Origin: Candidatus Woesearchaeota archaeon
Lineage (GTDB): Archaea > Nanobdellota > Nanobdellia > Woesearchaeales > GW2011-AR15
Direction: 5' to 3'
DNA length: 33,710 nucleotides
NCBI GenBank assembly: GCA_016928835.1
Contig: JAFGJW010000002.1
Span: 1 to 33,710, forward strand
Shown: positions 10,149-33,163 of the stretch, piece by piece
Layout: each line of letters begins with the position of its first letter
How positions within the stretch are numbered: position 1 is the first letter of the stretch
Notes under the pieces: generated by a model
Told to the model about the DNA's origin: nothing
What the model saw: the letters and a program-made list of their open reading frames with translations, nothing else
The model's database searches: none
Program-made: the position numbers and the translations under genes

Positions 10149-11290
10149 TTTTTCTTCCTAAGGTTGCTAATCAGTATCTTCTCTATTTTCTCCGCTGATT
10201 TTTTCCAGCTGAAACCTTTTTCTATATATTCCCTGCCGTCTTTTCCGCGTTTGTTTCTGTATCCTGGATTCTTAATTAGATATTCAATTTTCTTTCTAAG
10301 ATCTTCAGCATCATTCTCTTTGAAATATTCAACCTTATCTTCATAGACTTCCCTGAATATTGGCTTTTCAGAGCAGAGGCAGGGAATTTCACACGCCAAA
10401 GCTTCCATGGGAGGCATGCCAAAGCCTTCATGGGATGAGGGAAATACCATGAACATTGACTCTCTTATCAGCTTCCATTTTTCTGCATCATTAATAACAC
10501 CGGTAAATCCGCACTTGACACCAAGATCTATTGACATCTTGCGTAATTTTCTCTCTTCCTTACCTCCTCCGGCTATGACAAAAATTGGTGCATTGTTAAT
10601 AGCGGATAAAGCTTTAATTACAATGTCTATGTTTTTATATGGGTCCAATCTGCCTATGTATATGACCTGTTTTTTCTTTTTTACGTGGATAGGTTCTAAC
10701 TCGCTTAATGTAATTCCAGGATAAACAAAATCAGCTACTTTCTTATCTCCAAGCCATTTTTCACACCATTTTTTAGACAAAGCTGAGTTTGATATCAAGA
10801 TATCAGTTGCAAGATAAGCCTTTTTTGTTCTTTCCCAGCTTTTCTTAAAGCTGCCTTTGTACTCTTTGAACCATCTCTCTTTGAGGTCATGCTCCATCCA
10901 TGGAGGGGTTTCAAAAACAAAATTTACACTAGGTATATTGTATTTTTTTCCGAGCAGAGAGACTGCAATCGCAGAAGTCCTCAATGAGCCACATATGAAA
11001 TCAGCTCTGTTTTTCCTTAAATAAGGTTCTATCGTGAATCTTGAAAATAGGTATCCTACTATTTTATCAAGTCTAGCTGCTCCTTTAAACTTCCTTGGTA
11101 CATAGAACCTGTCAAATAGCTGCAGGTTTTTCGGAATGCTAGTTCCCTCAAGATACTTGTTATCTTTGCTTAGCCCAAAGATAATTACTTCATGGCCCCT
11201 CAGTGCAAGCCCCTCTGCAAATTTGAATAGGGAATAACCTCCTCCGCCCAGTCCTTTTCCAAAAGGGTTTATGAAGATTATTTTCATCAT
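10145..11290 (-). CDS. GT4-family glycosyltransferase
   Basis: 381 aa, GT-B fold. The N-terminus MMKIIFINPFGKGLGGGGYS carries the family's Gly-rich loop. The C-terminal domain has VIYIGRLDPYKNIDIVIKAL, then the donor-binding EGFGMPPMEALACEIP with the E(x7)E signature. The product is a hexosyl-type transfer from a nucleotide sugar to a lipid-linked or soluble acceptor; identity unknown. The stop of the upstream CapK-like gene overlaps the start in TAATGATG, so either of two adjacent ATGs (11290 or 11287) can serve. It lies between CapK-like genes in the nine-gene operon. Confidence 0.85.
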   Translation of the reverse strand: MMKIIFINPFGKGLGGGGYSLFKFAEGLALRGHEVIIFGLSKDNKYLEGTSIPKNLQLFDRFYVPRKFKGAARLDKIVGYLFSRFTIEPYLRKNRADFICGSLRTSAIAVSLLGKKYNIPSVNFVFETPPWMEHDLKERWFKEYKGSFKKSWERTKKAYLATDILISNSALSKKWCEKWLGDKKVADFVYPGITLSELEPIHVKKKKQVIYIGRLDPYKNIDIVIKALSAINNAPIFVIAGGGKEERKLRKMSIDLGVKCGFTGVINDAEKWKLIRESMFMVFPSSHEGFGMPPMEALACEIPCLCSEKPIFREVYEDKVEYFKENDAEDLRKKIEYLIKNPGYRNKRGKDGREYIEKGFSWKKSAEKIEKILISNLRKKK

Positions 11291-12636
11291 TAAAACTCCA
11301 ATGGCACTTTTGAGATAAAGTACCTCCGTTTGCCTTGTGATGTTAATGGGATATCTTCAACAAATTCAATCTTTATTCTGATGGCATCTCCAAGCCATTT
11401 TCTCATTGTTTTTTCAATCTCATCTAAGTTTGATTTTTTGAAATGCCTCCCTTTAACAATCTTAATAACTATCTCATTCTTCTTTTCCTGTATAACTTGG
11501 TAATATTTTCCTGTGAATTCGAGAAATGCAACCATGAAGTATTCTGCAGGAATATACTTGCCATCGGCTGTGACAAAGATATCTGAGACACGGCCCTGGA
11601 CATTCTTAAGCATTGGAAGTGCTCTTCCGCATTTGCATTGCTTATCAGTTAAAGTAACAACATCAGTATTTTCATACCTAATAAGAGGCATTGCATAATT
11701 ATGGAACTCAGTCAGCAATACCTTTCCTGGCACCCCAATTACATTCTTACCATTCCTTATTGTTTCCAGGACACCGTTTTCAACTGAGATATGATAACCC
11801 CCACATTGTTCGCACTGGGTAGATCTTATACTGCTCTCCCTGCCTCCGTAATCATCATATACCCTGCAGCTAAAGAAATCCTCAAACAATTTTCTCTGCC
11901 AGGGAAATAGTTTCTCTGCGCTCGTAATCACTCCTTTTACTTTTATTATAATCCCCTTACTCTTCATATATTTCACAATTACAACCAGCGAGGAGGGATA
12001 TGTGATTATATAATCCGGATTAAATTTGAATAATCTCTCACAATCATATTTAAGGGATTCATCTGTAAACATAAGCGCCTGGATAAGCAGCCTGTTCTCA
12101 GTGAAAAAGGTCTTAATCTTTTTCTTTATTGTAGACTCATTTTTAAGATCCATAGAGGCACCCCAGACATAGGCATACTTCTCCCCGAAGTCCCAGCCGC
12201 TCCATCTCCACCCTCGGTATGCTGCTGCCATATGGGCATCAAAGGTTGCCTGTGAATTATAGAAATGCAGGTGTCTTCCTGATGTCCCTCCTGTGCTGTA
12301 ATACTTGGGCTGATATTTCTGAATGTTCTTAGCCTTAAGCTTGTCAAAGTTATCAGCTATAATATCTTTTGTCAGAATCGGAATCTTATATAAATCTGCC
12401 ACTGTCCTAATATCAGAAGGTTTCAGCTTTTTTTTCTTAAACAATTCATGGTAATAAGGAACATTATTATATGCATGCCCTATTAAAGCTTTTAATCTAT
12501 TGTTCTGCAATTCAACTAGCTTTTCTTTCGGCCAGTGCTGGCTTTTCTCAAGTTCTTTGAGAACCTGAAGCCTTTTTCTTCCTGCACCAAATTCCCATAA
12601 TGGGAAAGTGATATGCTTTATTATGAATTTGTTCAT
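11290..12636 (-). CDS. CapK/PaaK-like adenylate-forming enzyme, copy 3 (divergent)
   Basis: 448 aa, same family as the two genes further downstream but clearly older in divergence. The phosphate loop is STGGTSGRHL, the adenylate region is YDDYGGRESS, and the zinc-type cysteines are more complete: CEQCGGYH plus CKCGR. NYAMPLIRYENTDVV matches the conserved core. The C-terminal domain ends SQGKRRYFISK, with the lysine typical of adenylation half-reactions. It follows the GT-C gene by 2 nt. Like its paralogs it probably activates a carboxylic acid for attachment to sugars; substrate unknown. Confidence 0.8.
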   Translation of the reverse strand: MNKFIIKHITFPLWEFGAGRKRLQVLKELEKSQHWPKEKLVELQNNRLKALIGHAYNNVPYYHELFKKKKLKPSDIRTVADLYKIPILTKDIIADNFDKLKAKNIQKYQPKYYSTGGTSGRHLHFYNSQATFDAHMAAAYRGWRWSGWDFGEKYAYVWGASMDLKNESTIKKKIKTFFTENRLLIQALMFTDESLKYDCERLFKFNPDYIITYPSSLVVIVKYMKSKGIIIKVKGVITSAEKLFPWQRKLFEDFFSCRVYDDYGGRESSIRSTQCEQCGGYHISVENGVLETIRNGKNVIGVPGKVLLTEFHNYAMPLIRYENTDVVTLTDKQCKCGRALPMLKNVQGRVSDIFVTADGKYIPAEYFMVAFLEFTGKYYQVIQEKKNEIVIKIVKGRHFKKSNLDEIEKTMRKWLGDAIRIKIEFVEDIPLTSQGKRRYFISKVPLEF

Positions 12637-21203: not shown

Positions 21204-21686
21204 ATGAAAAAGATTGTTTTGTTAGCATTGTTTCTGTTATCAGTAGTTTTTGTTGCTGCAATCCCACAAGTCGGGGATACTGGAACAGACACAACATATG
21301 GTTCTTATAATTGGAAAGTATGCAGGGCAGATGAAGATAGTGCCTGGGTTTCTGCAGATAGCAGCGGTACATTTAGCCCAATCAATGTATGCAATGGATT
21401 AGGGTATTCAGATGTTGACGCATGGGGAGGGACCTGCGGAGATGTCTGCGGTTACTGTTATGGAGATTCATACTACAACCCGAGCAATATTCCTAACTGG
21501 GAGCATTATGATTTTGCCGGAGGCGACAAAACTTATTTGGCTTATACTGTTCATTGGAGATGCGTGGATTATGCTGGCGGCCAAGAACCAGGAGATGAAC
21601 CAATCCCAGAGTTCACAGTAATCGGCGCAGGAATAACTTTGCTGAGTGCTGGGATATATGCTCTGCTTAAGAGAAAGAAAAAGTAA
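21204..21686 (+). CDS. Secreted PEF-CTERM protein A
   Basis: 160 aa. A signal peptide covers ~residues 1-19 (MKKIVLLALFLLSVVFVAA). The exported part carries six cysteines, four of them in or near TCGDVCGYCYG, and many Asp and Gly. An acidic linker (GGQEPGDEPI) leads to a PEF-CTERM tail at 135-160: PEFT, about 18 hydrophobic residues, then KRKKK. Such tails are recognised by archaeosortases, which remove the helix and attach the protein to a membrane lipid-type anchor. The Cys-rich core matches no family I recognise. A T-run (TTTTTTCTTATTTTTC) right after the stop probably ends the transcript. Confidence 0.8.
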   Translation: MKKIVLLALFLLSVVFVAAIPQVGDTGTDTTYGSYNWKVCRADEDSAWVSADSSGTFSPINVCNGLGYSDVDAWGGTCGDVCGYCYGDSYYNPSNIPNWEHYDFAGGDKTYLAYTVHWRCVDYAGGQEPGDEPIPEFTVIGAGITLLSAGIYALLKRKKK

Positions 21687-21775
21687 TTTTTTCTTATTTT
21701 TCTTTAATTGATTTTATCCTCTCAATCTATCTGTACCTTCTGTTTCAGTATTATGCAAGAGAGCATATCCCAGCA
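21647..21775. repeat. Imperfect inverted repeat spanning the 3' end of PEF gene A
   Basis: TGCTGGGATATATGCTCT (21647-21664, in the C-terminal helix codons) is matched in reverse complement by AGAGCATATCCCAGCA (21760-21775) downstream, with a 2-nt bulge. It may be a chance match, a 3' RNA structure, or a decayed inverted copy of a gene tail. Confidence 0.4.
21687..21704 (+). terminator. Oligo-T terminator after PEF gene A
   Basis: TTTTTTCTTATTTTTCTT begins within 1-2 nt of the stop codon. Archaeal RNA polymerase terminates at such T-rich tracts without a hairpin. Confidence 0.45.
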
Positions 21776-21825
21776 ATAATACTTGCTTCAAGTTCTGAAT
21801 AACAAGTAAATTTTTTAAGAAAAAA

Positions 21826-22233
21826 TCAGGTGAGACTTGTCATTACAATCTTCCCATATTTTACCCCTTTGGCAGCAATGATCTCATCAGCTAATTTTTG
21901 AATATTCTTTACCATTCCTTCAAGAACAATTACTTCAAGGCAATTATCAGGGTTTATATGTATATGAAGAGAACTTCTTATCAAATCTGGATGATGGTGC
22001 TGGATATGTGTTAGCTCATCCTGCACATGATGCCTGTGATGCTCATAAACAATTGTCAGTGTACCCATCATCTGGGCTTCTGGATTCTGCATTTCCTGTT
22101 CAACCAACTCCATTCTAACAAGATCTCTTATTGCTTCTGATCTGTTCTTGTATCCCTTTTCTCTTATCAAGTCATCAAATTGCCTCAGCACTTTAGCATC
22201 AAATGCTATTCCTTTTCTTATTATTTTGTCCAT
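21826..22233 (-). CDS. nikR: Nickel-responsive regulator NikR
   Basis: 135 aa from the ATG at 22233. The frame is open upstream to 22293, but that would run over the operator and the TATA box, so the shorter start is chosen; it gives the usual NikR length. An N-terminal RHH domain (KGIAFDAKVLRQFDDLIREK, NRSEAIRDLVR) is followed by the ACT-like metal domain. The four nickel ligands are in place: H79, H90, H92 and C98, with the same 11-2-6 spacing as E. coli H76, H87, H89, C95. It binds DNA when nickel-loaded. The GTAACAC repeat between it and the divergent membrane genes is its likely operator. Confidence 0.93.
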   Translation of the reverse strand: MDKIIRKGIAFDAKVLRQFDDLIREKGYKNRSEAIRDLVRMELVEQEMQNPEAQMMGTLTIVYEHHRHHVQDELTHIQHHHPDLIRSSLHIHINPDNCLEVIVLEGMVKNIQKLADEIIAAKGVKYGKIVMTSLT

Positions 22234-22242
22234 ATTTAACTG

Positions 22243-22271
22243 GTAACACAATACTAGTATAAAAGTGTTAC
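22243..22271. promoter_or_regulatory. Candidate NikR operator overlapping the nikR promoter
   Basis: GTAACAC, 15 nt, then GTGTTAC: perfect 7-bp arms with a layout like the E. coli NikR site (GTATGA-N16-TCATAC). The spacer holds the palindrome ATACTAGTAT, and on minus TTTTATACT acts as a TATA box ~27 nt before the nikR ATG. The plus-strand TATA of the divergent genes (TTTATATAG, ~22296-22304) lies just beyond, so NikR bound here could control both directions. Confidence 0.7.
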
Positions 22272-22336
22272 GTTTTTCAAAAAAGTAGCACAAAGTTTAT
22301 ATAGTGGCTAGCTCATCTATAAAATGAGGTGAGAAA

Positions 22337-22681
22337 ATGGCATGTTTCATTGCACCAACGTCTGTTGCGATAATAACAACAGCCTTAAGGAAAAAATTCC
22401 CTAAAAATTGGCATATCAATTGGTTAAATACCATGATTTGGGGTGGAGCAGTAGGATTGGCAATTGAACATATAGCGCACCAAGAGATTGTCCCCTGGCC
22501 TCCATTTTTAACAGCTATGGGCAATCCTGCTGATACAGTAGTGATGCTAAAGGAGATGGCAAGTGTAGGAGTTCCAATGACCTTTGCTTTGGTTTTCGCA
22601 TGGGCTGTTATAGTAAATGTCTATGAAAATTTCATAGTAACAAATAGGTCATCTATCTCAGCACGCACGACATCAAAATAA
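22337..22681 (+). CDS. Small membrane protein linked to NikR (first of pair)
   Basis: 114 aa, function not recognised. Two or three hydrophobic segments: FIAPTSVAIITTAL near the start, NTMIWGGAVGLAIEHIA (~31-47), and VGVPMTFALVFAWAVIVNVY (~77-96). A striking EHIAHQE sits at the edge of the second segment, followed by VPWPPFL: closely spaced His and Glu that could bind a metal within or near the membrane. A perfect Shine-Dalgarno GAGGTGA lies 4 nt before the ATG. It is divergent from nikR across its likely operator and is followed after 12 nt by a second small membrane gene. A role in nickel or other metal transport or sensing is inferred from context only. Confidence 0.7.
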   Translation: MACFIAPTSVAIITTALRKKFPKNWHINWLNTMIWGGAVGLAIEHIAHQEIVPWPPFLTAMGNPADTVVMLKEMASVGVPMTFALVFAWAVIVNVYENFIVTNRSSISARTTSK

Positions 22682-22693
22682 GGAGTGATCAAG

Positions 22694-22990
22694 ATGTGGC
22701 TCATAATAATACTAATAGCAACAATCCTTGCTTCAGCACTTTTTCTCTTGCTGAAAGGCTATAGAAAGAAATTAAAACTTGGATTTTTGACCCTCATGTT
22801 ATTTGGAACATTCTTAATGGTACTAGTAGATCATGCAATAGCTTTTATCAATGGTGAACCATTCATAGAGATCACAACAGATGGCCTTATTAGGAGTGCC
22901 ACATTGCTGGGGTTTGTGATGGTAATCCCAATTCTTGTGATTTGGATACTTGCGGTTTTAATATCATTTAAACCTAAACACACATCTTGA
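22694..22990 (+). CDS. Small membrane protein linked to NikR (second of pair)
   Basis: 98 aa from the ATG at 22694. A GTG at 22685 is in frame but lies inside the Shine-Dalgarno AGGAGTGAT, so the ATG is preferred. Three hydrophobic segments (~2-20, 30-48, 66-92). The second ends in LVDHAIAFINGEPF, which echoes the EHIAHQE of the previous gene: an acidic residue next to His at a helix end. I do not recognise the family. It is co-transcribed with the previous gene and probably forms a complex with it. T-rich sequence follows the stop (TTTTTTTCTTTCTTTT). Confidence 0.68.
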   Translation: MWLIIILIATILASALFLLLKGYRKKLKLGFLTLMLFGTFLMVLVDHAIAFINGEPFIEITTDGLIRSATLLGFVMVIPILVIWILAVLISFKPKHTS

Positions 22991-23091
22991 TTTTTTTCTT
23001 TCTTTTATCTAGTAAAAGTGACCTATTTATACATGCCCGTGTCTTCACACAAAGGATTTATTACTATTATCAAATGACAATAAAGCGAAAG

Positions 23092-23103
23092 ATTTATATA
23101 TAA
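23092..23103 (+). promoter_or_regulatory. TATA box of PEF-CTERM gene B
   Basis: TTTATATATAAG lies ~64 nt before the ATG at 23161. The predicted start of transcription is ~23123, leaving a leader of nearly 40 nt, longer than for most genes here, which contains the AGGGGGTATTAA box. Confidence 0.55.
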
Positions 23104-23126
23104 GAAGAGAATAGGTTGTGTTAAAA

Positions 23127-23138
23127 AGGGGGTATTAA
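23127..23138 (+). promoter_or_regulatory. Leader box AGGGGGTATTAA before PEF-CTERM gene B
   Basis: One base differs from the box of gene A. Here it lies 22 nt before the ATG, and a separate Shine-Dalgarno (AGAGGAAAT) follows it, so it is not needed as the ribosome site and may have another role. Confidence 0.55.
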
Positions 23139-23160
23139 ATTAAGATAAAGAGGAAATAAA

Positions 23161-23721
23161 ATGAAAAAAATATTGCTGTTTATAATAATAAGTGTGTTTG
23201 CAGTGAGTTCTGTTATGGCAACCGCACCAACATGCGAGAGTTATGGTTATGACCGTACAAAAGAAGGAGCTGTGGGCTCGCCAGATGAAGAATGCCAGGA
23301 AGCAGGATTTGATTTCGGCATAGTAAAGTGGGAATGTGATGGTGGAACATATAGCATGTCTGAAGAAGGAGTTAGGTCTGGTTATAGTGTGTCTATTTCA
23401 GGAGATTGCTCTTCAGCAACCTGGACATCTACTCCAGGAGCAGATGGTGTCTTGAGTAAAGAAGGCAACTGCTATCAAGATCTGGCTGGCGGCACAAGTG
23501 GCACTGTTACAAAACTTCATTATGATATTAGTCATATTACACTTTGCGGTAATGAACCTCAGTGCACAACAACGACCACATCAACAACAACCACATATCC
23601 AAGTACAACTACAACAAGCACAACTACAACAACTGAGGCAATACCTGAATTCACAGCAATAACAGCTGGTTTTACAGCACTAGGCTTTGTTGCCTATAGT
23701 CTATTTAAAAGAAAGAAGTAA
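23161..23721 (+). CDS. Secreted PEF-CTERM protein B with Thr-rich linker
   Basis: 186 aa. The signal peptide is ~1-20 (ILLFIIISVFAVSSVMA). The exported core (~21-135) has seven cysteines and no family I recognise. It is followed by a Thr/Ser-rich linker (~137-158), typical of O-glycosylated stalks, and a PEF-CTERM tail at 162-186: PEFT, hydrophobic helix, KRKK. Expected to be exported, cut and anchored by the archaeosortase at 28099. Oligo-T follows the stop. Confidence 0.8.
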   Translation: MKKILLFIIISVFAVSSVMATAPTCESYGYDRTKEGAVGSPDEECQEAGFDFGIVKWECDGGTYSMSEEGVRSGYSVSISGDCSSATWTSTPGADGVLSKEGNCYQDLAGGTSGTVTKLHYDISHITLCGNEPQCTTTTTSTTTTYPSTTTTSTTTTTEAIPEFTAITAGFTALGFVAYSLFKRKK

Positions 23722-23740
23722 ACTTTTCTTTTTCTCTTTT

Positions 23741-24745
23741 TTATAATACAAATAAGCCTATTACGCAGAATAGAAAAGTAATTCCATAGAGAATCAATGT
23801 TGCCTGTCTTTCTGTAAGCCTAAACCAACTAACCAATAAGAATTTTAATGATTTGTACTTCATTGTTTGTGGCGGCTCTATTGTATTATCTTTTCTCAAA
23901 ATGCCAAATTTAATATCCTTCTGTTTTTTAACAACAATGGTCCAGGTATCCATTAAAAAATTTATTATATGCGGTATTAGGATAAAAACACCGAACCATT
24001 CCATGTTCGATGCTAAGAGAAATGCCCCGATTGCTCCCCCAACTAGAAAAGAGCCAATATTTCCCTCAACAACCTTTGCTGGGTACAGGTTTGAAGGCAA
24101 AAATCCCGTTAATGCTCCAAAAACAGGGAGCAGAAATATCAGATTTGCCAGCCCGTCCTGGATAAAAGATTTTATTCCTATGAATAATAGCAAAATCCAA
24201 GAAGTGCCCATAGCCAAACCATTATATCCTGAGTGAAGATTGGTTAAGTTTGCCACTACCATAATATATATCGGTGCAATCAGCAAAGAGTAAATCGGCC
24301 CGAGCTCAACATTAAAAAATATTAGATTAAGCTGTGTATCTGTAATTAGCGAAGCAATAGGAAAGCTTAAACCTAATATCACTAGAATCTTATCATATCT
24401 CTTCTTTGGCTTGAAGAGATCATCAATGACTCCATAGAGAGCATATATAATTACAATAAAATAGAATATGAACATCTTGCCAAGGAGGGATGATTCAATA
24501 AATGTGTCTCCTGGACTTAGAGTCTCAAAGATTTGAGAGAGGCTCAGTGAAACAAGGACTCCGCCGAGTATGGCGATCCCTCCCATCGTGGCTATCTTTT
24601 TCTTATCTCTCTTATACTTATCCTGTACAGTATAGCCGTATTTCGCTAGTCTATTGATTATGTATGGAAGTATCCAGATAGTGCTGAAGAGACCATAAAG
24701 GAAAATCAATATTAGCTTGTATAACAATTGGATATTTTCCATCAT
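23741..24745 (-). CDS. WecA/MraY-family sugar-1-phosphate transferase (AglH-like)
   Basis: 334 aa with about ten membrane helices. Family motifs: KKIATMGGIAIL (~49-60), the Mg-binding DD at 108-109 in YGVIDDLFKPKKR, NLTNLHSGYNGLA (166-178), and PAKVVEGNIGSFLVGG in the nucleotide-binding loop region. It transfers HexNAc-1-phosphate (or similar) from a UDP-sugar to dolichyl or polyprenyl phosphate, the first step of lipid-linked oligosaccharide synthesis. The archaeal HexNAc-P transferase AglH is the closest known role. It sits between PEF-CTERM genes and away from the main transferase operon, but likely starts the same glycan. Confidence 0.88.
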   Translation of the reverse strand: MMENIQLLYKLILIFLYGLFSTIWILPYIINRLAKYGYTVQDKYKRDKKKIATMGGIAILGGVLVSLSLSQIFETLSPGDTFIESSLLGKMFIFYFIVIIYALYGVIDDLFKPKKRYDKILVILGLSFPIASLITDTQLNLIFFNVELGPIYSLLIAPIYIMVVANLTNLHSGYNGLAMGTSWILLLFIGIKSFIQDGLANLIFLLPVFGALTGFLPSNLYPAKVVEGNIGSFLVGGAIGAFLLASNMEWFGVFILIPHIINFLMDTWTIVVKKQKDIKFGILRKDNTIEPPQTMKYKSLKFLLVSWFRLTERQATLILYGITFLFCVIGLFVL

Positions 24746-24774
24746 ATAAATCTAAAGAGAACAAGTTGCTTTAT

Positions 24775-24813
24775 ATTTTTTTCTTTTAAAAAATAAAAAA
24801 AGAAAAAGAAGAT
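24775..24813 (-). terminator. T-rich terminator after PEF-CTERM gene C
   Basis: On minus, the sequence after the stop is very T-rich (CTTTTTCTTTTTTTATTTTT), as expected for archaeal termination. Confidence 0.45.
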
Positions 24814-25314
24814 CTATTCTTTTTTTCTCTTCTTTGCAATGAAAAGACCTGCACCCACTAATGCAAGAGCTGCACTGATCGTGGTGAATTCTGGAATTTC
24901 TTCAGGTACAACACATTCAATGTCAATTGTTGTATGCAACTGTCCATCTGTATATGCATGTGCAAATGTGCTATCCCATACTGGCGGCTGCCAATCTGGA
25001 ACATATCCTGAGCATGTCCATCCATCTGGAGCATCAGTTACCTTTGCTCTATACCAAGTACTCCATTGGGCTGTCCAAGTTGGAGTGAATCCTGCAACAT
25101 TTGTAACACCTGTTCTCCAGTTTGGTGTCCATCTATACCCAAACCATCCATCCTGGTCTACTCTAACAGTTAAGTCATTTAGTGGATTTCCATCTTGATC
25201 ATGGACAAATACATTTATGTCTGGATTTGGACATCCTATGCCGCAATCAAAAGCAAATACACTTGTTGTCATCAATGCTATTACTGCCAGCAAAATTGTT
25301 ATTACTTTTTTCAT
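24814..25314 (-). CDS. Secreted PEF-CTERM protein C
   Basis: 166 aa. The signal peptide is ~1-21 (TILLAVIALMTTSVFAF). The start of the mature part, DCGIGCPNPDINVFVHDQDG, then GNPLNDLTVRVDQDG, suggests a small beta-sandwich like those of CNA-B/carboxypeptidase-regulatory type. It is unusually rich in Trp and has four cysteines. The PEF-CTERM tail is at 141-166 (PEFT, helix, KKRKKE). GGAGGT is 7 nt before the ATG. It is divergent from the archaeosortase operon, starting ~155 nt from it. Confidence 0.8.
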   Translation of the reverse strand: MKKVITILLAVIALMTTSVFAFDCGIGCPNPDINVFVHDQDGNPLNDLTVRVDQDGWFGYRWTPNWRTGVTNVAGFTPTWTAQWSTWYRAKVTDAPDGWTCSGYVPDWQPPVWDSTFAHAYTDGQLHTTIDIECVVPEEIPEFTTISAALALVGAGLFIAKKRKKE

Positions 25315-25337
25315 TCTTTAACCTCCTTAGTTTATTG

Positions 25338-25349
25338 TTTTACACCCCT
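25338..25349 (-). promoter_or_regulatory. Leader box AGGGGTGTAAAA before PEF-CTERM gene C
   Basis: Minus-strand AGGGGTGTAAAA resembles the boxes of genes A and B. It lies between the TATA box (TTTAAATATAAC, ~25382-25393) and a separate Shine-Dalgarno GGAGGT (25321-25326), so it is inside the 5' leader but is not the ribosome site. Confidence 0.5.
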
Positions 25350-25436
25350 TTTAGAAAAATTGCATAAGAAAATAGAGTAGTTATATTTAAATGTTTCTTT
25401 TTGTCGCCACTCCAGAATAGATAGTACTTATAACAA

Positions 25437-25449
25437 ATTATTTAAATTT
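25437..25449 (+). promoter_or_regulatory. TATA box of the archaeosortase operon
   Basis: AATTATTTAAATT is centred ~26 nt before the ATG at 25470, predicting a leaderless transcript. Confidence 0.5.
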
Positions 25450-25469
25450 CCAAAAAACCTTTATTAGTA

Positions 25470-27806
25470 ATGGATGATTTTCAGAATGTATTTTACAAAG
25501 CACTAATAATAAGTCTAGTCCTGGGGGTTTTTATTTCAATTGGGTTCTTATACTTAACAAAACCAGAAGCAAGCTATTTTTCTGAGCTCTATTATCTTGA
25601 TCAGGAAAACCTCCCAAACCAGATAGAGCTTGACAGAAACTACAATTTCGCCTATGAGATTAATAGCAGGGAAAATAAAACAGAGACCTATGAATATGAA
25701 ACAGTGGTTGAGTTATTTAGGATTTATGACATATCTGAAGGGAATTATGACTGTTTCAGCGAGTTTCGTGAAAAGCTATATTATCAATGGCTGCCAGCTA
25801 ATGAGAGCAATTATTCAATAATTGGAGTGATGCAAAAAGACGACCTTTACAACGATTTCTATACAGTCCAGGACACAGATTATAACAATAGAGAGATAAA
25901 AGAAGAGGAGTATTCTTTGTACCTTGAATATGAATCTGGCTACGGCATGGGCCAGTTTAATATTGTGTTTGGGAATGGAACCAGCAGAAAATTTGCACTC
26001 ATACTTTCTGAATCTGATAACACCACATATTTTATATTTTGGAACAGCACGATTAATACCACTGTTACGAAAGTAGTTAATCTTACTGGTGATGATAAGC
26101 ATATTGTTGAGATTAGGATTAATCAGGGAAGATTTTCTGTGTTTGTTGACTCTAATCTTGTATTAAGCCAGGATTCACTGTATTTTTCTGACAGAATCCC
26201 GGATTATACTGGCGGAAGATTTACGCTTGAGTCCAGAAACTCATATTATTCCATAAGACGGATGCAGCTGTATCCTGGAGGCAAAGCTATAGATGTTTTA
26301 CTTCAGGGCAACAAGCTTTTGGATTACCAAAGGAAGATCAGCGAGATGAGATCTGACTATATTGATATAGTAAGCAAAGGAATCTCTGAAAAACATGGAT
26401 ACAATACATCTCTTAAATACTTCCTCAATATCAGCAGTCCTTCTGAAATATCTGTCACAGGCCACGAATTCGGTGAGCTTAATATTACTTCTCAAGTATC
26501 TGAACATGATGAGGGAGTATATCCGCTAATATACCAATGGGCTGATATTGAATACGAGCTTTCTTCTTACCCAACAAATGTTTTTGAAACTACTGAAAAC
26601 AGTCCAATCAATTTTACTAATTTCACTTTAAGCTTTGATTTCCAAACAAGCTATGGAGAGCAGCAGCTCATGCTATATTTTTATGACCAGGATAATAATA
26701 CAAAATACAGTTTCTTAGTAAATCAGCAAAAGCATGCCCTTTTCTTCCTTGAATATACACCAGATGCAATAAAAGTTACATATAAGAAGCATCAGCTCAA
26801 TACTTTGCCGCATACTGTCCTGATGAATTTTACTGAGTCAAACCTTGATATAATCATAGATAAAAAACCTGTTCTTCACCTTGATAATATTACTAGCATA
26901 TTTTCAGATATCTCCTTTGAAGCAAAAAATACCTATATTTACATTGATGATATTAGGATAGTAAACAGAGACCCCAATTGTGACAGCAAGACTTTTCTAG
27001 GAAAGTGCCTGAAATCTTATAGAACAGATACCAGAAGAGGAGTCAGTGTATATCAAGAAGTGGATGTAGGCTTTAAGGAGACCTTGATAAGAAATATCTC
27101 AGCAGATGAGCAATTAGTTTTAGATTTGCCCCTCCCACCGCTGGCAAAAACAGATGAGAGTGTCATGCAGGAATATAATCCATATATCAAGGATACAAGT
27201 TTCATGTTCAATGGACCTTCAGCAAGACTCCAGGCAATGAGTAATTACACATTTAGCATGAATTATTTGACTCTTGAAGGATTAGGGGTAGTAAGTGTTG
27301 GATTTAAAGATATAAATGATTCTGATGCTTTTAAGCTGGTTTTATCAGATAAAACAGATGAGGCATTATTGATTACAAAAACAGTTAATCGCACAATACA
27401 AAGTAATCTGACGGAAGGCGAATGGAATATTATACAAATCAATTATAATAATGGAATAACAAAATTAATTCAAGACTACAATACAGAGCTATTTGTAACC
27501 AATAAACTCAACCTATCCAATGGATATTTTTTTATTACTACTCAGAACACCTATGCAAACTTCAGAGGAGTCCAGCTTAGGGACAATTCATTGAATCTAA
27601 TCAGGAGATACAATCTGGAGGAGAATCCATGCGAGATGCGTCTCATTTTCGAGAAGATTCTAGACAAGAGAGAGATAGTTCTCTATCCTAATGAAAAATA
27701 CACTGCACACAATAATTTTACTATAAATACAAGTTTTGATTTTGGGAAGATAACCACAAACTTATTAAATAAGAACCAATCCATCCATTTTTGGCTAAAG
27801 AGATAG
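25470..27806 (+). CDS. Large sequon-rich exported protein of the archaeosortase operon
   Basis: 778 aa. One membrane helix near the N-terminus (~12-29, LIISLVLGVFISIGFLYL) and then an extracellular part. Residues ~33-80 (SELYYLDQENLPNQIELDRN, EINSRENKTETYEYETVVE) resemble the soluble segment of DUF1616 proteins that accompany archaeosortases. Three jelly-roll/concanavalin-like stretches follow (~150-270, ~385-505, ~585-705), each ending in a phrase like TLESRNSYYSIRRMQLYP, FEAKNTYIYIDDIRIV or ITTQNTYANFRGVQL. There are roughly two dozen N-x-S/T sequons, so heavy N-glycosylation is likely. No PEF tail. Perhaps an anchored glycan- or substrate-binding partner of the archaeosortase. The homology claims are by eye. 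Confidence 0.65.
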   Translation: MDDFQNVFYKALIISLVLGVFISIGFLYLTKPEASYFSELYYLDQENLPNQIELDRNYNFAYEINSRENKTETYEYETVVELFRIYDISEGNYDCFSEFREKLYYQWLPANESNYSIIGVMQKDDLYNDFYTVQDTDYNNREIKEEEYSLYLEYESGYGMGQFNIVFGNGTSRKFALILSESDNTTYFIFWNSTINTTVTKVVNLTGDDKHIVEIRINQGRFSVFVDSNLVLSQDSLYFSDRIPDYTGGRFTLESRNSYYSIRRMQLYPGGKAIDVLLQGNKLLDYQRKISEMRSDYIDIVSKGISEKHGYNTSLKYFLNISSPSEISVTGHEFGELNITSQVSEHDEGVYPLIYQWADIEYELSSYPTNVFETTENSPINFTNFTLSFDFQTSYGEQQLMLYFYDQDNNTKYSFLVNQQKHALFFLEYTPDAIKVTYKKHQLNTLPHTVLMNFTESNLDIIIDKKPVLHLDNITSIFSDISFEAKNTYIYIDDIRIVNRDPNCDSKTFLGKCLKSYRTDTRRGVSVYQEVDVGFKETLIRNISADEQLVLDLPLPPLAKTDESVMQEYNPYIKDTSFMFNGPSARLQAMSNYTFSMNYLTLEGLGVVSVGFKDINDSDAFKLVLSDKTDEALLITKTVNRTIQSNLTEGEWNIIQINYNNGITKLIQDYNTELFVTNKLNLSNGYFFITTQNTYANFRGVQLRDNSLNLIRRYNLEENPCEMRLIFEKILDKREIVLYPNEKYTAHNNFTINTSFDFGKITTNLLNKNQSIHFWLKR

Positions 27807-27808
27807 GA

Positions 27809-28141
27809 ATGATGAATATATCAGGCTTGTTGCAGATTGTCCTTGGAATTGTTTTTTCTTTATTCCTGCCAGGATTTATCCTGACATTAATATTTTTCAA
27901 GGAGCTTAAGTTTATTGAGAAAGCTGTCCTTGGAGTTGCATTGAGCCTTGCACTAGATATTGCGACAGCAATATTTCTCGGCTATAATGAGTACATGAAG
28001 AATCTTACAGGAGGGATTACAGCCAATAACGTATGGACGTATTCCCTTACTATAAGTGGTTTCTTAATAATTGTATATGTTGTCAAGAGTGAGATTGAAT
28101 GGCTAAAGAAAAGGAAAAAAAGAAGAAGCCCTTCCTCGTAG
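27809..28141 (+). CDS. Short DUF1616-like membrane protein
   Basis: 110 aa from the ATG at 27809 (an in-frame TTG at 27791 is less likely). GLLQIVLGIVFSLFLPGFIL then FIEKAVLGVALSLALDIATA matches the membrane part of archaeal DUF1616 proteins, where LPG and a KIERIAL-like helix are typical. Three hydrophobic segments, then a basic tail. The soluble domain usually following in DUF1616 is missing and may be supplied by the preceding 778-aa protein. The start lies 2 nt after that gene's stop, and the end overlaps the archaeosortase gene by 43 nt, so the three are translated together. Confidence 0.68.
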   Translation: MMNISGLLQIVLGIVFSLFLPGFILTLIFFKELKFIEKAVLGVALSLALDIATAIFLGYNEYMKNLTGGITANNVWTYSLTISGFLIIVYVVKSEIEWLKKRKKRRSPSS

Positions 28142-29121
28142 AATATTATGAGAGCAAATTCATACGGGGGTTTGTGCTAAAGTCCGCTATCTTCCTTGGA
28201 ATACTATTTGCTGTTAATCTATTCATAATGCTTTATTTCAGGCATACTGCTTTTTTTCTGCAATATCTGAAAATACCTGAGCTTTTCTATATCCCTTTCC
28301 TTACTGGCCTGTCAAAAGGCAAGCTGCTCAACGCTTTCATCTTTATATCAGTTATCTTTATTGTCTATATAAGAAAGAAGATACCCAAACTTAAAGGATT
28401 TGACGTGAAGATGAAACAGAGCTTTACCTTTATTTTCATTGCTTTTATAATGCTTGCATTGCAGTATCTGCTCAAGTTCTGGATCAAACAAAACCTTGAT
28501 TATGCTATCTCAATTTCATATGTTGTAACACTGCTAAAGTATGTGTTGAATATCTTATTTGTAGTTCTGCTTGCTGTAGGCATATACAGCTGGGACTTCA
28601 TTAAATATTTTGTTAGGACATTTTATAAGGAGATTTCCATTTTTTCAATTGTATTTTTTGCATACTGGTCGCTGCTTGAATTATTCCAGAAAACATGGCT
28701 TATCCTAAGTACAATTGTTGCCAAGTGCGTGGGCTTTCTTCTTGGCCTCAGCTTCAATAATGTTGTGGTTAACTATGCAACTCCTCAGGGCCCACAGATA
28801 GGTGTACAAGGCTTCTCGCCATATGTAAGCGCAGAATGCTCAGGAATTGACTCACTGCAGCTGTATATCTCGCTTTTTGTGTTTCTACTTGCACTGGACT
28901 GGAAGTCAATAAATAAAAAGAAGATGCTCAGCATATTCCTGCCAGGGCTTTTTCTAACCTTTCTTTATAATATTTTAAGAGTCTATTTGATCATATTAGT
29001 AGGAGTATTTATCTCCCCTACATTCGCCATAGATACTTTTCATACAAACATAGGGTGGATTTTATTCTTAGCAGTATTCTTTGTTTTTTGGCACTTCGGC
29101 AGCAAATATGTATATGATTAA
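28099..29121 (+). CDS. Archaeosortase/exosortase family transpeptidase
   Basis: 340 aa with about eight membrane helices after a very basic N-terminus (AKEKEKKKKP). The catalytic triad of the family is plain: C247 in SAECSGIDSL, R294 in LYNILRVYL, and H315 in DTFHTNIGW. It should cut the PEF-CTERM tails of exported proteins and join the new C-terminus to a membrane anchor. From memory, PEF-CTERM proteins pair with the ArtC type, but subfamily assignment needs a model search, so no symbol is given. The start overlaps the DUF1616-like gene by 43 nt. Three candidate substrates lie within 7 kb. Confidence 0.9.
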   Translation: MAKEKEKKKKPFLVEYYESKFIRGFVLKSAIFLGILFAVNLFIMLYFRHTAFFLQYLKIPELFYIPFLTGLSKGKLLNAFIFISVIFIVYIRKKIPKLKGFDVKMKQSFTFIFIAFIMLALQYLLKFWIKQNLDYAISISYVVTLLKYVLNILFVVLLAVGIYSWDFIKYFVRTFYKEISIFSIVFFAYWSLLELFQKTWLILSTIVAKCVGFLLGLSFNNVVVNYATPQGPQIGVQGFSPYVSAECSGIDSLQLYISLFVFLLALDWKSINKKKMLSIFLPGLFLTFLYNILRVYLIILVGVFISPTFAIDTFHTNIGWILFLAVFFVFWHFGSKYVYD

Positions 29122-29498
29122 TATCCTAGTTTATCCACAACCAGGTGCAGACAAGCAGACAAAAATGAGACTAAAGCTACAATAATAAACCACTGGGCTG
29201 GCAGTTCTTTTTTCAATAATTTATTAGTCATGAAAACTGCAACCTGTGCAAAGGGTATTACAATAATAAGATAGGAGACTGAGTGAGATAATTTATAAAG
29301 ATGAGAGCCAAATATGAAAGACAAAATAACATAGCTAGCATCTGGAAAAAATGAACCAATAAATGCAGGAACTACAATCAGTAAAGAAAAGGTTTTATTT
29401 AATTTTTTCCTAAGAAAAGGATATAATATCAATACAATAATTAATGTTACAATCTGGTTAGGCAGGTCCTGGGAAAGAGCGTATTCTAGATAGGACAT
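29118..29498 (-). CDS. YdjM/DUF457-like membrane protein, putative metal-dependent hydrolase
   Basis: 126 aa with four hydrophobic segments. Polar residues at helix ends fit the YdjM/YbcI membrane-bound hydrolase family: D53 in FFPDASYV, H66 and H72 in SHLYKLSHS, H118 and D122 in LHLVVD. Relatives have a phospholipase-C-like histidine/aspartate layout, though enzymatic activity is poorly established. A TATA-like TTTTTTATACTA (~29518-29529) lies ~25 nt before the ATG, implying a leaderless mRNA. It converges on the archaeosortase gene with a 4-nt overlap. Confidence 0.6.
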   Translation of the reverse strand: MSYLEYALSQDLPNQIVTLIIVLILYPFLRKKLNKTFSLLIVVPAFIGSFFPDASYVILSFIFGSHLYKLSHSVSYLIIVIPFAQVAVFMTNKLLKKELPAQWFIIVALVSFLSACLHLVVDKLGY

Positions 29499-29510
29499 TT
29501 GATTGGTAAA

Positions 29511-29536
29511 ACAATAATAGTATAAAAAATTATTGT
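29511..29536. promoter_or_regulatory. Inverted repeat upstream of the YdjM-like gene
   Basis: ACAATAAT, 10 nt (AGTATAAAAA), ATTATTGT: perfect 8-bp arms. It encloses the TATA-like box of the YdjM-like gene and also lies 13 nt after the stop of the CPBP gene, followed on minus by TTTT. It could be an operator or a terminator hairpin. Confidence 0.45.
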
Positions 29537-29549
29537 CGGATATTAATTA

Positions 29550-30140
29550 TTACCAGAACCACCATGATTGGGTAATGATTACATAAATACCAAGGAAAAG
29601 GTTTGTTGTTGCATGTGCAAAAACACATTCTGAGATATCTTTTGTTTTGTAATAAACAAGATTATAAATTATGCCTGCTATCAAGCCTGCCAGCCATCTG
29701 CTGTGGGAAAACCCAAAAAATAGTACAGTTATGGCAAAGGAAAGCCATGTGAACCTAGGTTTTGTCTTTTTCCAGTTGTCGCTGTCAATTAAGTATCTCA
29801 GCAGAAATGATCTAACAAATAATTCCTCAACCAAAGGTGCAACGAGGATACTGCCCGCATATTTAATGAGAATTGCCAAAGCAGATAAAGGGATAAATGA
29901 AGGTTCTGCCAATCTAGGATAGAGGTCATCGAGCGAAACCCAAAAGATAAAAACAACTACTCCTGCAAAAAAAGAATAATTGCTAATCTTAAATTTCAAT
30001 TTGTAGTTTTTCCAAAAATAGAGTATTACCACTAAAGTCAACAAATATCTTAGACTAAAGGCTATAGTGTCCCTAAAGAAATAGGAAAAAAGGAAGGTTG
30101 ATATAATATAGGTAAAGAAAGGGATAACGTAAGCTCTCAT
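29550..30140 (-). CDS. CPBP (CAAX/Abi) intramembrane protease, exosortase-associated type
   Basis: 196 aa with about six membrane helices. Catalytic residues of the CPBP family are present: E105, E106 and R110 (APLVEELFVR), H146 (FGFSHSRWL) and H176/N180 (FAHATTNLFLG). The stretch from VEELFVRSFLLRYLI through RFTWLSF, RWLAGLIAGIIYN to the Trp-rich C-terminus QSWWFW closely recalls the CAAX-protease-related proteins that travel with bacterial PEP-CTERM/exosortase systems. It lies next to the archaeosortase operon and may process sorted proteins or the sorting machinery. A TATA box (TTTAAATATAAA, ~30157-30168) predicts a leaderless mRNA. Confidence 0.85.
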   Translation of the reverse strand: MRAYVIPFFTYIISTFLFSYFFRDTIAFSLRYLLTLVVILYFWKNYKLKFKISNYSFFAGVVVFIFWVSLDDLYPRLAEPSFIPLSALAILIKYAGSILVAPLVEELFVRSFLLRYLIDSDNWKKTKPRFTWLSFAITVLFFGFSHSRWLAGLIAGIIYNLVYYKTKDISECVFAHATTNLFLGIYVIITQSWWFW

Positions 30141-30194: not shown

Positions 30195-32618
30195 CTATTT
30201 TTTCTTTGAAAATAGGCCAATGAACCAATCAACTATCTTTTTCAACAGACTTTTCTCATATATATTGACAATCTCCTCATCTGTTGTAGTCGTTGTTGTG
30301 CCTGTTCCGGGTAATGAAGAATCTCCCTGAGATCCGCTTGAACCAGCTGATGTGCTCACTGCGCTGATTGAGAGAGGGTCTGATACAGCACGGTAGGTAC
30401 TGTCCTTGTAAGAGTAATATGCAACTGCTTTATCTGTAAATATATTATCTTTTGTTAAATTATAGGTTATGTTCTGCTCAGTCTCAGGCCCTATTGTAAG
30501 GTTCCATTCCTGAATATCATATAATTGTATTATGGCCTCAGTGTCTCCGATATTCCTAATAGTCAATGTTACATTTGCCACATCTTCCTCACCCAATGTA
30601 TTTTTATCCACTAGCTTGGTTAGCAGAACAACTGGGCCTTCAAGCACAACTTGTGTTACACTGATAGAAATTGCAGCTGCTGTTGAATTCAGCTCCCTTC
30701 CAAGATAGTTAGCATATCTGAATATGGAGCTATCCAATCCAATTGTGCCATACGTTTTAGGTCTCACCTTTTCTGTGACCCTTAATGACTCTCCAGGGTC
30801 CATCTTATCAATAGATGTACTAAAAGAGTCCACAGTATCAAACTCCTGATCTTCAGTAAAAAATAATACAATGTCATACACCGGCTCTGTGTCTCTGTTC
30901 TCAATCACATAATTTACTTCTGATGTCTTTCCGAGATGCATTGAGCCTGCTGATTTTGTTACACTAACATCGCTGCTTCTGGGAGTTACTGTCAGTGTTT
31001 TTATTGTATAGGGGTTGTATTCCCCCTCAAGGTCCTTATAGTATACATCAGTGCGTAGCTCATATGCTGTCTCAGCAATGATTCTGGGAGCAGTTATCTG
31101 ATAGGAATATGCTTCCAATGATTGGCCGGGCGCAAGGGAGAGTGTGTTTGAGGTCACACCTTCGATCTTAAAATTTGGGATATCTTCTGACACTTTAATA
31201 TTGTATATGGTATCCTCTACTCTGTCGTTTGTTAACTGGACAGTCACTGTTACTATGCCTTCTTCTTCTATTGAATCAGCAGAAAGTGTTTTTGTTATTG
31301 ATATGCCCCTTATTGGCACAATTGTTATTTTTTTTGTTGTTTTTTGACTAAATTCTTCACCATGCTGGGATTCATAGGTAATGTTGAGGTCTATATCATG
31401 AGTAGTTGAGGAAGTTACATCAGGGAGAGCAAACATCATATCCACTAATCTATCGCTTTGATTGACAGCAAGTCTTGGATATGAAAGACCTGTTATATTT
31501 AGTAGGGTGCTTGAGAAGTGCGGCTTGACATTTTTAATATCAATAAAAGAATTGAGGTTCTTAACACCAAAAGTAATGCGAATGCTCTTTCCTTCTTCAA
31601 AAGACTGTTCATTCTCTAAGGAAGAAGTGATTTCTATCCCCTTATTTACTACATTAATCTCCTTCGTTATTGTCTTTGTCAGTGACATAGTGTCATAATC
31701 ATAGTCAACTGTCATAATCAATAGAGAGGTCCCTGATAGTTTCCCAGAAACATCAATATAGAATTTTTTTGTTCCGTTTGTCAATGACCCGTCCCATACA
31801 TATAGGCCCTCCTCTTCTTCAAGATTATGATTCTCAACAACCAGGCTTTTCGGAACTGTGATTTCAAGCCTCTTTATGTCAATATCGTCTTCGATTAGAT
31901 TTGTAATAGAGAAATTTACTCTAGTCTCTTCCATCATTTCAATCTCACTCTTATCTGCAAGTATGCTACTCTCAAGAAGCGGCTCAACTGTGAATGAAAC
32001 ACTGGACGAATAATACTTCGAACCCAGGTACTCGACATAAGCGCGGAGGGTTGTATCCACTTTTTCTGTACAATAAACCTCATAGCTAAATGATACACTA
32101 TCCTGGCTTTCTATATCTCCTTCCCATAGGACTTGGTTATCAGCAATATCGCAGGATGAACATTTTTCAATTGCAAAGGAAGAAGGAAAATCCTCAATAT
32201 ATTTAACTTCTGTTGCTTCTGTATCACCTGTATTAGTAATCTCAACACTAAAGGTTGCCTTATCACCAACACTTAGTGTTGTGGCTGATATTGCTCTCTG
32301 TATTGAGAATTTTGGTTTTATAGTGTATATCTTAACATAGACTTTGTAATCCGCAATATCCAGATCATAAACAGAAGAATTAAAATATATCTCATTCAAC
32401 GGAAAAAGCCCCGACTCGCGCTTGCCGATAACAATTGTATTTGCACCTGATGTCACTAGGATTGTACTGCCGCCCGTTGCCACATCAATTTTATAGTTCT
32501 CACCACCTATTGTCACAGAGTTATGGTTAACGACCCAGTTGTTGTACACTAGGTCTCCTGCTGCTGCAAATGATGCTACTAGTATAAACATAATAATTGG
32601 AAGTGAAACTTTTTTCAT
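30195..32618 (-). CDS. S-layer-like repeat protein (COG1361/CARDB type)
   Basis: 807 aa. The signal peptide is ~1-21 (LPIIMFILVASFAAAGD). A distinct ~90-residue N-terminal domain precedes about five or six Ig-like repeats of ~100 residues, recognisable by phrases such as VEITNTGDTEATEVKYIEDF, VTVQLTNDRVEDTIYNIKVS and LTIRNIGDTEAIIQLYDI: the COG1361/CARDB/DUF11 pattern of archaeal surface proteins. Several N-x-S/T sequons. A Ser/Gly- then Thr-rich linker (GSSGSQGDSS, TTTTTT) leads to a C-terminal amphipathic tail SLLKKIVDWFIGLFSKKK. It has no PEF motif, so it is not an obvious archaeosortase substrate. Translated with the upstream gene (4-nt overlap). Confidence 0.8.
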   Translation of the reverse strand: MKKVSLPIIMFILVASFAAAGDLVYNNWVVNHNSVTIGGENYKIDVATGGSTILVTSGANTIVIGKRESGLFPLNEIYFNSSVYDLDIADYKVYVKIYTIKPKFSIQRAISATTLSVGDKATFSVEITNTGDTEATEVKYIEDFPSSFAIEKCSSCDIADNQVLWEGDIESQDSVSFSYEVYCTEKVDTTLRAYVEYLGSKYYSSSVSFTVEPLLESSILADKSEIEMMEETRVNFSITNLIEDDIDIKRLEITVPKSLVVENHNLEEEEGLYVWDGSLTNGTKKFYIDVSGKLSGTSLLIMTVDYDYDTMSLTKTITKEINVVNKGIEITSSLENEQSFEEGKSIRITFGVKNLNSFIDIKNVKPHFSSTLLNITGLSYPRLAVNQSDRLVDMMFALPDVTSSTTHDIDLNITYESQHGEEFSQKTTKKITIVPIRGISITKTLSADSIEEEGIVTVTVQLTNDRVEDTIYNIKVSEDIPNFKIEGVTSNTLSLAPGQSLEAYSYQITAPRIIAETAYELRTDVYYKDLEGEYNPYTIKTLTVTPRSSDVSVTKSAGSMHLGKTSEVNYVIENRDTEPVYDIVLFFTEDQEFDTVDSFSTSIDKMDPGESLRVTEKVRPKTYGTIGLDSSIFRYANYLGRELNSTAAAISISVTQVVLEGPVVLLTKLVDKNTLGEEDVANVTLTIRNIGDTEAIIQLYDIQEWNLTIGPETEQNITYNLTKDNIFTDKAVAYYSYKDSTYRAVSDPLSISAVSTSAGSSGSQGDSSLPGTGTTTTTTDEEIVNIYEKSLLKKIVDWFIGLFSKKK

Positions 32619-33163
32619 TTTTCAATTAATCTTTTTGCTCTCTGCGCAGAGATATAAAATATTTTTATTAGTCTGAAAAAGGCGGTTTCCGGAAATACCT
32701 TGAGATTATCATTTTTGTACTCTTTTAATACAAGTAAGAGTCCACCTTCTGTCACTAAAGTACTAAATTCCTCTGGAATACTTTCGTTAAAGCTGAAGTC
32801 TTGCTGTTTAAAGATAAATAACTTATACCTAGTGCCAAGTATTTCATTAAGGTCATTCTCATCATAAAGCTGCTGTATGTCACTAATGCTCTCCTCTGAT
32901 AATATGGCAGCTGGTTCAAAATCTTGTGCTTCAAAGCCAGTAATAATTGTATTATCGTCTAATAAGAGAAAAAGACTTTGTTGTGAGTATAGGTTTTTTC
33001 GTAAGTCATTAACATCTTTGGCAACAAAATAGCCACATACAAGGGCTATTATTGTTATAATCACAGCAAAAAATATCAGGGTTTTCAAGAGCTGCCTGAC
33101 AATCTTGAAGATTACTATGAAAATGACTACTAGCACCACCAGATATAATAACAATTTTATCAT
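32615..33163 (-). CDS. Membrane-anchored protein of unknown function
   Basis: 182 aa, no family recognised. Two hydrophobic segments at the N-terminus (~2-20 and ~27-48) are followed by a soluble domain of ~130 residues. That domain has an alternating pattern (SLFLLLDDNTIITGFEAQDF, YKLFIFKQQDF, LLLVLKEYK) suggesting an alpha/beta fold. A TATA-like ATATTTAAAAAC (~33185-33196) lies ~28 nt before the ATG. It overlaps the S-layer-like gene by 4 nt, so the two are co-expressed; it may assist secretion or assembly of that protein. Confidence 0.6.
   Translation of the reverse strand: MIKLLLYLVVLVVIFIVIFKIVRQLLKTLIFFAVIITIIALVCGYFVAKDVNDLRKNLYSQQSLFLLLDDNTIITGFEAQDFEPAAILSEESISDIQQLYDENDLNEILGTRYKLFIFKQQDFSFNESIPEEFSTLVTEGGLLLVLKEYKNDNLKVFPETAFFRLIKIFYISAQRAKRLIEK

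What the first reader, a model, noticed from the sequence alone, without database searches (positions are those of the whole stretch)
21204..30140. Compact archaeosortase / PEF-CTERM surface-anchoring locus with three substrates
An archaeosortase with intact Cys-Arg-His residues (C247, R294, H315), three small Cys-containing secreted proteins with PEFT-helix-KRKK tails, a split DUF1616-like pair, an exosortase-type CPBP protease and a lipid-linked glycan initiator all lie within 9 kb. Archaeosortase genes are often far from their substrates. The close packing suggests a dedicated pathway that anchors a few cysteine-bearing surface proteins, perhaps glycosylated. The substrates match no family I recognise.
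Basis: partly seen in the sequence, partly recalled or inferred. Interest (0 to 1): 0.8.

Follow-up and report, generated by a model that had tools for sequence, protein, structure and literature searches.

The report
Archaeosortase locus anchoring PEF-tailed surface proteins
A Woesearchaeota genome carries, in one 9-kb stretch, an enzyme pair and helper genes that very probably cut the tails off small exported proteins and fix them to the cell surface; the kind of system is known, but this partner set in archaea appears undescribed.

Summary
The window is part of a Woesearchaeales (DPANN) assembly. It encodes one archaeosortase/exosortase-family protein (C247, R294 and H315 invariant in 38 homologues), three exported proteins with [VI]PEF[TSG]-helix-basic tails, an exosortase-associated glutamic intramembrane protease (TIGR03008), a DUF1616-like pair and a GPT-type glycan initiator. 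The tails are not random: six in the genome (three here, three on other contigs). Across 149 near-complete genomes of the order, tails occur in 20 of 38 with the enzyme and 1 of 111 without (p about 2e-13). The protease occurs only in enzyme-bearing near-complete genomes. The parts reassort into different adjacent pairs from genome to genome. In bacterial exosortase E the archaeosortase and protease domains are one polypeptide.

Substrate glycosylation is not supported (no N-sequons; the GPT is the genome's only one). The tails fail the curated PEF-CTERM model, and the enzyme does not match ArtC, the published PEF-CTERM partner. The 778-aa partner is a membrane-tethered tandem laminin-G/CBM66-like protein.

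Best reading: a new variant of the archaeosortase/exosortase kind. Cleavage site, anchor and protease role are inferred.

The parts
21204..21686 (+). Substrate 1: 160-aa exported protein, 6 Cys, tail IPEFTVIGAGITLLSAGIYALLKRKKK (tail about 21600-21686)
   Evidence: tail E=2.2e-12; body related only to a tailed protein in G045
23161..23721 (+). Substrate 2: 186-aa exported protein, beta-rich body ending DISHITLCG, Thr-rich linker, tail IPEFTAITAGFTALGFVAYSLFKRKK (about 23635-23721)
   Evidence: 8.8e-10; body cluster with nine other tailed proteins, the largest; modelled body, no PDB match
23741..24745 (-). GPT/WecA/MraY-family polyprenyl-phosphate sugar-phosphate transferase; the only one in the assembly; adjacent and divergent to the big gene in seven other genomes
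   Evidence: (PF00953 78.6 bits)
24814..25314 (-). Substrate 3: 166-aa exported protein, 4 Cys, tail IPEFTTISAALALVGAGLFIAKKRKKE (about 24814-24903)
   Evidence: (2.7e-14)
25470..27806 (+). 778-aa single-pass membrane protein; N-terminal part resembles the DUF1616 C-terminal half, followed by tandem laminin-G/ConA/CBM66-like beta-sandwich domains; 25 N-sequons
27809..28141 (+). Small membrane protein resembling the N-terminal half of DUF1616 (an earlier TTG at 27791 is in frame); two strong TM segments by hydropathy
   Evidence: (23.1 bits, cut-off 31.6)
28099..29121 (+). Archaeosortase/exosortase-family cysteine transpeptidase-like protein, C247 / R294 / H315
29550..30140 (-). CPBP (Rce1-like) glutamic intramembrane protease, TIGR03008 family; matches the C-terminal half of exosortase E
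29118..29498 (-). Small hydrophobic protein between the enzyme and the protease (four hydrophobic segments); homologue found only near the archaeosortase of G151; membership uncertain

Best explanation
This is a C-terminal protein-sorting system of the archaeosortase/exosortase kind, in a Woesearchaeales lineage form. Substrates are exported by Sec and held by the C-terminal helix with its basic end inside. The archaeosortase (C247-R294-H315) cuts at or near the [VI]PEF[TSG] motif on the outer face through a thioester. It passes the protein to a membrane acceptor, most simply an amino-archaeal lipid such as archaetidylethanolamine, so the protein becomes surface-anchored. The TIGR03008 glutamic intramembrane protease acts in the same pathway, probably in the membrane on the tail: either trimming it, or disposing of the cut hydrophobic tail peptide. 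The 778-aa lectin-like protein and the small DUF1616-like protein probably form an ectodomain complex with the enzyme that engages the glycan coat or the substrates. Shown: enzyme family and intact residues, the tails, and co-occurrence and gene linkage of all parts. Inferred from known families: cleavage, thioester, anchoring. Speculative: the acceptor, the protease step and the role of the DUF1616-like pair.
For: Family placement and invariant C, R, H. Tails present in 20 of 38 enzyme-positive and 1 of 111 enzyme-negative near-complete genomes, p=1.9e-13; still 1.2e-8 after removing the genomes that supplied profile rows. Motif highly constrained in 84 tailed proteins: V or I before PEF in 80, S, G or T after it in 82. 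TIGR03008 in 13 of 38 versus 0 of 111, p=3e-9. All ten genomes with a long match to the 778-aa protein and a detected enzyme also have tails and the protease. Linkage: big-DUF1616-enzyme in nine other genomes, with divergent GPT in seven; protease within 7 kb of tails in six other genomes, 0.75 expected, p=3e-5; protease-big-DUF1616-GPT cluster in G042 (L177); enzyme next to tails in about ten loci. Bacterial exosortase E proteins align to the window's enzyme in their N-half and to its protease in their C-half. A PS-decarboxylase-family gene that could supply the amino-lipid donor is in the genome; H. volcanii ArtA-dependent processing needs PssA and PssD homologues (PMC7157517).
Against: No biochemical evidence. 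Eighteen of 38 enzyme-positive near-complete genomes have no tail that this profile detects, so other tails or other functions exist. The tail profile was partly built from tails found next to the enzyme. CPBP proteases are functionally diverse, and no direct tie to tail cleavage is shown. The lipid acceptor is an analogy from H. volcanii. PS decarboxylase is common in archaea.
Confidence: 0.82

Rival explanations
1. The tails are ordinary C-terminal membrane anchors of surface proteins and the archaeosortase acts on something else.
For: Any surface protein may carry a C-terminal helix with a basic end; NCBI's generic LPXTG_anchor model matches the tails on helix and charge alone.
Against: Fixed [VI]PEF[TSG] motif in nearly all of 84; clean score gap in the genome; co-occurrence with the enzyme at p about 2e-13; repeated adjacency to enzyme or protease.
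Confidence: 0.07
2. The CPBP protease, not the archaeosortase, is the sorting enzyme that cuts the tails (myxosortase-like), and the archaeosortase does a different step.
For: CPBP family MrtX cuts MYXO-CTERM tails (PMC11980579); the window's protease sits beside PEF substrates in six other genomes where the archaeosortase is elsewhere.
Against: PEF tails lack the invariant Cys that myxosortase substrates need. Many tailed genomes with an archaeosortase have no TIGR03008 protease (8 of 20 near-complete ones), while only G154 (87% complete, 240 contigs) has protease and tails without a detected archaeosortase. Mrt_core scores 22 bits against a cut-off of 100.
Confidence: 0.1
3. The system belongs to Gram-positive-type sortase anchoring (LPXTG-like), as automated annotation would say.
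For: TIGR01167 LPXTG_anchor passes its cut-off for several of the tails.
Against: No LPXTG motif; the match covers only helix and charge; the co-occurring enzyme is an exosortase-family protein. A sortase search of the whole genome was not run.
Confidence: 0.02

Closest known systems
PEF-CTERM / archaeosortase C (TIGR03024 / TIGR03762) of methanogens and ANME
   Same: Pro-Glu-Phe motif, hydrophobic helix, basic end; archaeal exosortase-family enzyme.
   Different: Window tails do not reach TIGR03024 and the enzyme has no match to TIGR03762 at E<=1; a TIGR03008 protease partner is present here and was not found in the control M. acetivorans, H. volcanii and M. jannaschii genomes.
Exosortase E/protease, VPEID-CTERM system (TIGR04162), bacteria
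   Same: Exosortase domain plus CPBP protease domain; the window's two proteins align to its two halves.
   Different: Separate, convergent genes here; different tail motif (PEF rather than PEID); archaeal host with a DUF1616-like pair; scores of 50 and 84 bits against a 150-bit cut-off.
PEP-CTERM/EpsH exosortase systems with CAAX-protease-related proteins (TIGR03008; PMC1569441)
   Same: Same protease family and same enzyme superfamily; exosortase-CAAX fusions were already noted in 2006; link to polysaccharide genes.
   Different: Archaeal, PEF motif, lectin-like ectodomain partner.
ArtA / PGF-CTERM of Haloferax (PMC7157517)
   Same: Archaeal C-terminal processing with Cys-Arg-His enzyme and probable lipid attachment.
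   Different: Different motif and enzyme subfamily; no artA-pssA-pssD linkage in the window.

Membership tests
Exosortase/archaeosortase superfamily (TIGR04178, PF09721) | Score above curated cut-off | tested here: met
   45.5 > 23 and 45.6 > 25.7 bits
Exosortase/archaeosortase superfamily (TIGR04178, PF09721) | Invariant Cys, Arg, His | tested here: met
   C247, R294, H315 in 38 of 38
Exosortase/archaeosortase superfamily (TIGR04178, PF09721) | Transpeptidase or cleavage activity | not testable with these tools
   needs biochemistry
Archaeosortase C / PEF-CTERM (TIGR03762, TIGR03024) | Enzyme matches TIGR03762 | tested here: not met
   no match at E<=1; some distant relatives match weakly at 37-46 bits, cut-off 100
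Archaeosortase C / PEF-CTERM (TIGR03762, TIGR03024) | Tails pass TIGR03024 | tested here: not met
   window tails: no hit at E<=0.1; best related tail seen with its cut-off scored 16.8 bits against 23; 11 of 23 profile rows match at E<=1, best 8e-6
Archaeosortase C / PEF-CTERM (TIGR03762, TIGR03024) | Pro-Glu-Phe, helix, basic tail architecture | tested here: met
Exosortase E/VPEID (TIGR04162) | Single fused exosortase-protease polypeptide above cut-off | tested here: not met
   two genes; 50.5 and 84 bits against 150
TIGR03008 exosortase-associated CAAX-protease-related protein | Score above cut-off | tested here: met
   139.4 > 81 bits
TIGR03008 exosortase-associated CAAX-protease-related protein | CPBP motifs EExxxR, FxxxH, HxxxN | tested here: met
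   positions 105, 142, 176; conserved in 19 of 19
Myxosortase (Mrt) | Substrate tail with invariant Cys; Mrt_core match | tested here: not met
   no invariant Cys in tails; 22 bits against 100
DUF1616 (PF07760) | Score above gathering cut-off | tested here: not met
   23.1 and 12.5 bits against 31.6; homologues up to 29.5

The most novel reading that the evidence does not exclude
A three-part surface-sorting machine specific to Woesearchaeales: an archaeosortase and a separate glutamic intramembrane protease work in sequence on the same tail, and a DUF1616-like membrane subunit with a tandem lectin-like ectodomain delivers the cut proteins to, or links them with, a surface glycan rather than a plain lipid.
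Probability: 0.22. Interest if true: 0.72.

Novelty: new variant of a known kind. Interest (0 to 1): 0.5.

Why it matters
C-terminal sorting is little described in DPANN archaea: the held library has four papers naming both archaeosortase and DPANN, each with a single mention of archaeosortase. How DPANN cells build the surface that contacts a host is an open question. The motif and enzyme pair give a rule that finds 84 candidate surface proteins, mostly unassigned. The archaeal separation of parts that are fused in bacterial exosortase E makes the long-unexplained role of the CAAX-type partner testable.

Tried and rejected
(1) I first read the roughly 480-aa archaeosortases of five relatives as archaeosortase-CPBP fusions. 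Domain scans showed the exosortase domain at the C-terminus, and the extra part is N-terminal, so this was dropped. (2) Glycosylation of substrates: no sequon enrichment, and the GPT is the genome's only one, so the GPT cannot be dedicated; the single STT3 lies on another contig. (3) Fold of the substrate 2 body: modelled with moderate confidence, no PDB match. (4) No relative in viral contigs; no RNA family or tRNA in the window. (5) Sigma-70 promoter scan: at chance level and not suited to archaea. (6) The tree of enzymes places the window copy in a supported clade of 12 whose sampled members mostly carry the DUF1616-like pair; deep branches are unresolved, so bacterial or archaeal origin stays open. 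(7) The founding archaeosortase paper (J Bacteriol 2012) is not held and could not be read.
Full report
WHAT IS THERE. The window is a whole stretch of contig G000:C14 in a 1.53-Mb, 95% complete assembly. All near relatives of its archaeosortase with named records are Woesearchaeota or Nanoarchaeota assemblies, so this is a Woesearchaeales genome. The finding's genes are all present. The archaeosortase passes TIGR04178 and PF09721, is the only one detected in the genome, and keeps C247, R294 and H315, which are identical in 38 of 38 homologues. The protease passes TIGR03008 and keeps all three CPBP motifs.

THE TAILS ARE REAL AND THERE ARE SIX. A 28-position profile of the tails finds exactly six in the genome at E <= 1.4e-7 and then nothing until E = 7.7. 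Three are in the window and three are on contigs C2, C8 and C16. Across relatives 84 distinct tailed proteins were collected, mostly small (often 130-220 aa). The motif is [VI]PEF[TSG] in nearly all of them. Their bodies fall into several families plus many singletons; one family reads as a carboxypeptidase-regulatory-like beta domain (judged by eye), and substrate 2 belongs to the largest, ten-member cluster. Cysteine numbers in the bodies are mostly even (60 even, 18 odd, p=1e-6 if independent), which fits disulfides rather than catalytic or lipidated cysteines. Homologues share parity, so the p-value is optimistic.

THE PARTS BELONG TOGETHER. Order-wide searches used the same 242 genomes. 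Among 149 near-complete ones, tails occur in 20 of 38 with an exosortase-family gene and in 1 of 111 without. Removing the genomes that contributed rows to the profile leaves p=1.2e-8. The TIGR03008 protease occurs in 13 of 38 versus 0 of 111. A search of 371 genomes of the phylum found it above cut-off only within the window's order. Every genome with a long match to the 778-aa protein and a detected enzyme also has tails and the protease; the exception, G223, is a fragmented genome with tails but neither enzyme nor protease found.

THE PARTS REASSORT. The block big gene - DUF1616-like - archaeosortase recurs in nine other genomes, in seven with a divergent GPT. In six other genomes the protease sits within 7 kb of tailed substrates, away from the archaeosortase (0.75 expected, p=3e-5). 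In G042 the protease joins the big gene, the DUF1616-like gene and the GPT (L177), while the archaeosortase sits among substrates (L061). In G040 the protease is about 1.5 kb from the archaeosortase (L068). The window is the one locus seen where all of them lie together. In bacterial exosortase E the two enzymes are one chain: proteins in L151, L153, L155, L156 and L157 align to the window archaeosortase in their N-terminal half and to the window protease in their C-terminal half (from about residue 335 on). Exosortase-CAAX fusions were reported in 2006 as a Rosetta-stone hint (PMC1569441).

THE DUF1616-LIKE PAIR. Both matches are below Pfam's cut-off, but the small protein matches the N-terminal part of PF07760 and the large one the C-terminal part in more than one genome. 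The large protein is more than a DUF1616 half. Its model (mean pLDDT 73) has one N-terminal helix and tandem beta-sandwiches that resemble laminin-G/neurexin, galectin and CBM66 domains, and a profile search independently touches CBM66 levanase weakly (E=0.013). It carries 25 N-glycosylation sequons against about 10 expected. A role as a glycan- or substrate-binding ectodomain is inference.

HOW IT PROBABLY WORKS. Sec export and membrane arrest at the tail; cleavage at or near PEF by the Cys enzyme; transfer to a membrane acceptor. In Haloferax, ArtA-dependent processing needs homologues of archaetidylserine synthase and decarboxylase (PMC7157517); this genome has a PS-decarboxylase-family gene, so the same donor is possible. 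The protease step is unknown. Myxosortase shows that a CPBP protease can cut sorting tails (PMC11980579), but its substrates need an invariant Cys that PEF tails lack.

The system is not dedicated to three proteins. N-glycosylation of substrates is not supported. The GPT is the genome's only PF00953 gene and the single STT3 is elsewhere, so the GPT is a general gene that repeatedly neighbours this system. Strict membership in PEF-CTERM/ArtC fails. Automated annotation would call some of these tails LPXTG anchors, which is misleading.

STANDING. A new variant of a known kind: familiar enzyme superfamily and tail logic, with a partner set that I did not find described in archaea. The literature check was limited to open-licence papers; the founding 2012 paper could not be read.

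Noticed in passing
L078:10342-11784 (+) and L082:6333-7775 (+): Exosortase-family paralogues that have lost the Cys, Arg and His, a few kb from an intact copy, with a PEF-tailed 113-aa protein nearby; possible pseudo-enzyme partners.
   Followed up: partly
L147:8234-10783: A contig filed as a WWE3 (Patescibacteria) bacterium carries an archaeosortase relative next to two PEF-tailed proteins: transfer between ultra-small archaea and bacteria, or misbinning.
   Followed up: partly
L131:9306-9902: Partial duplicate of the archaeosortase N-terminal region inserted between the DUF1616-like gene and the full enzyme in G151.
   Followed up: no
window 7438-12636: Three PaaK/CapK-like adenylate-forming enzymes interleaved with a glycosyltransferase in a polysaccharide cluster.
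   Followed up: no
window 21826-22990: NikR-type regulator divergent from two small unassigned membrane proteins (114 and 101 aa); possibly a nickel transporter, sitting between two PEF substrates.
   Followed up: no
window 23161-23721: Substrate 2 family ('DISHITLCG' beta body) gives a moderately confident model with no PDB fold match.
   Followed up: partly
window 30195-33163: 807-aa exported DUF11-repeat protein and an overlapping 182-aa protein downstream of the protease on the same strand; surface proteins without PEF tails.
   Followed up: no
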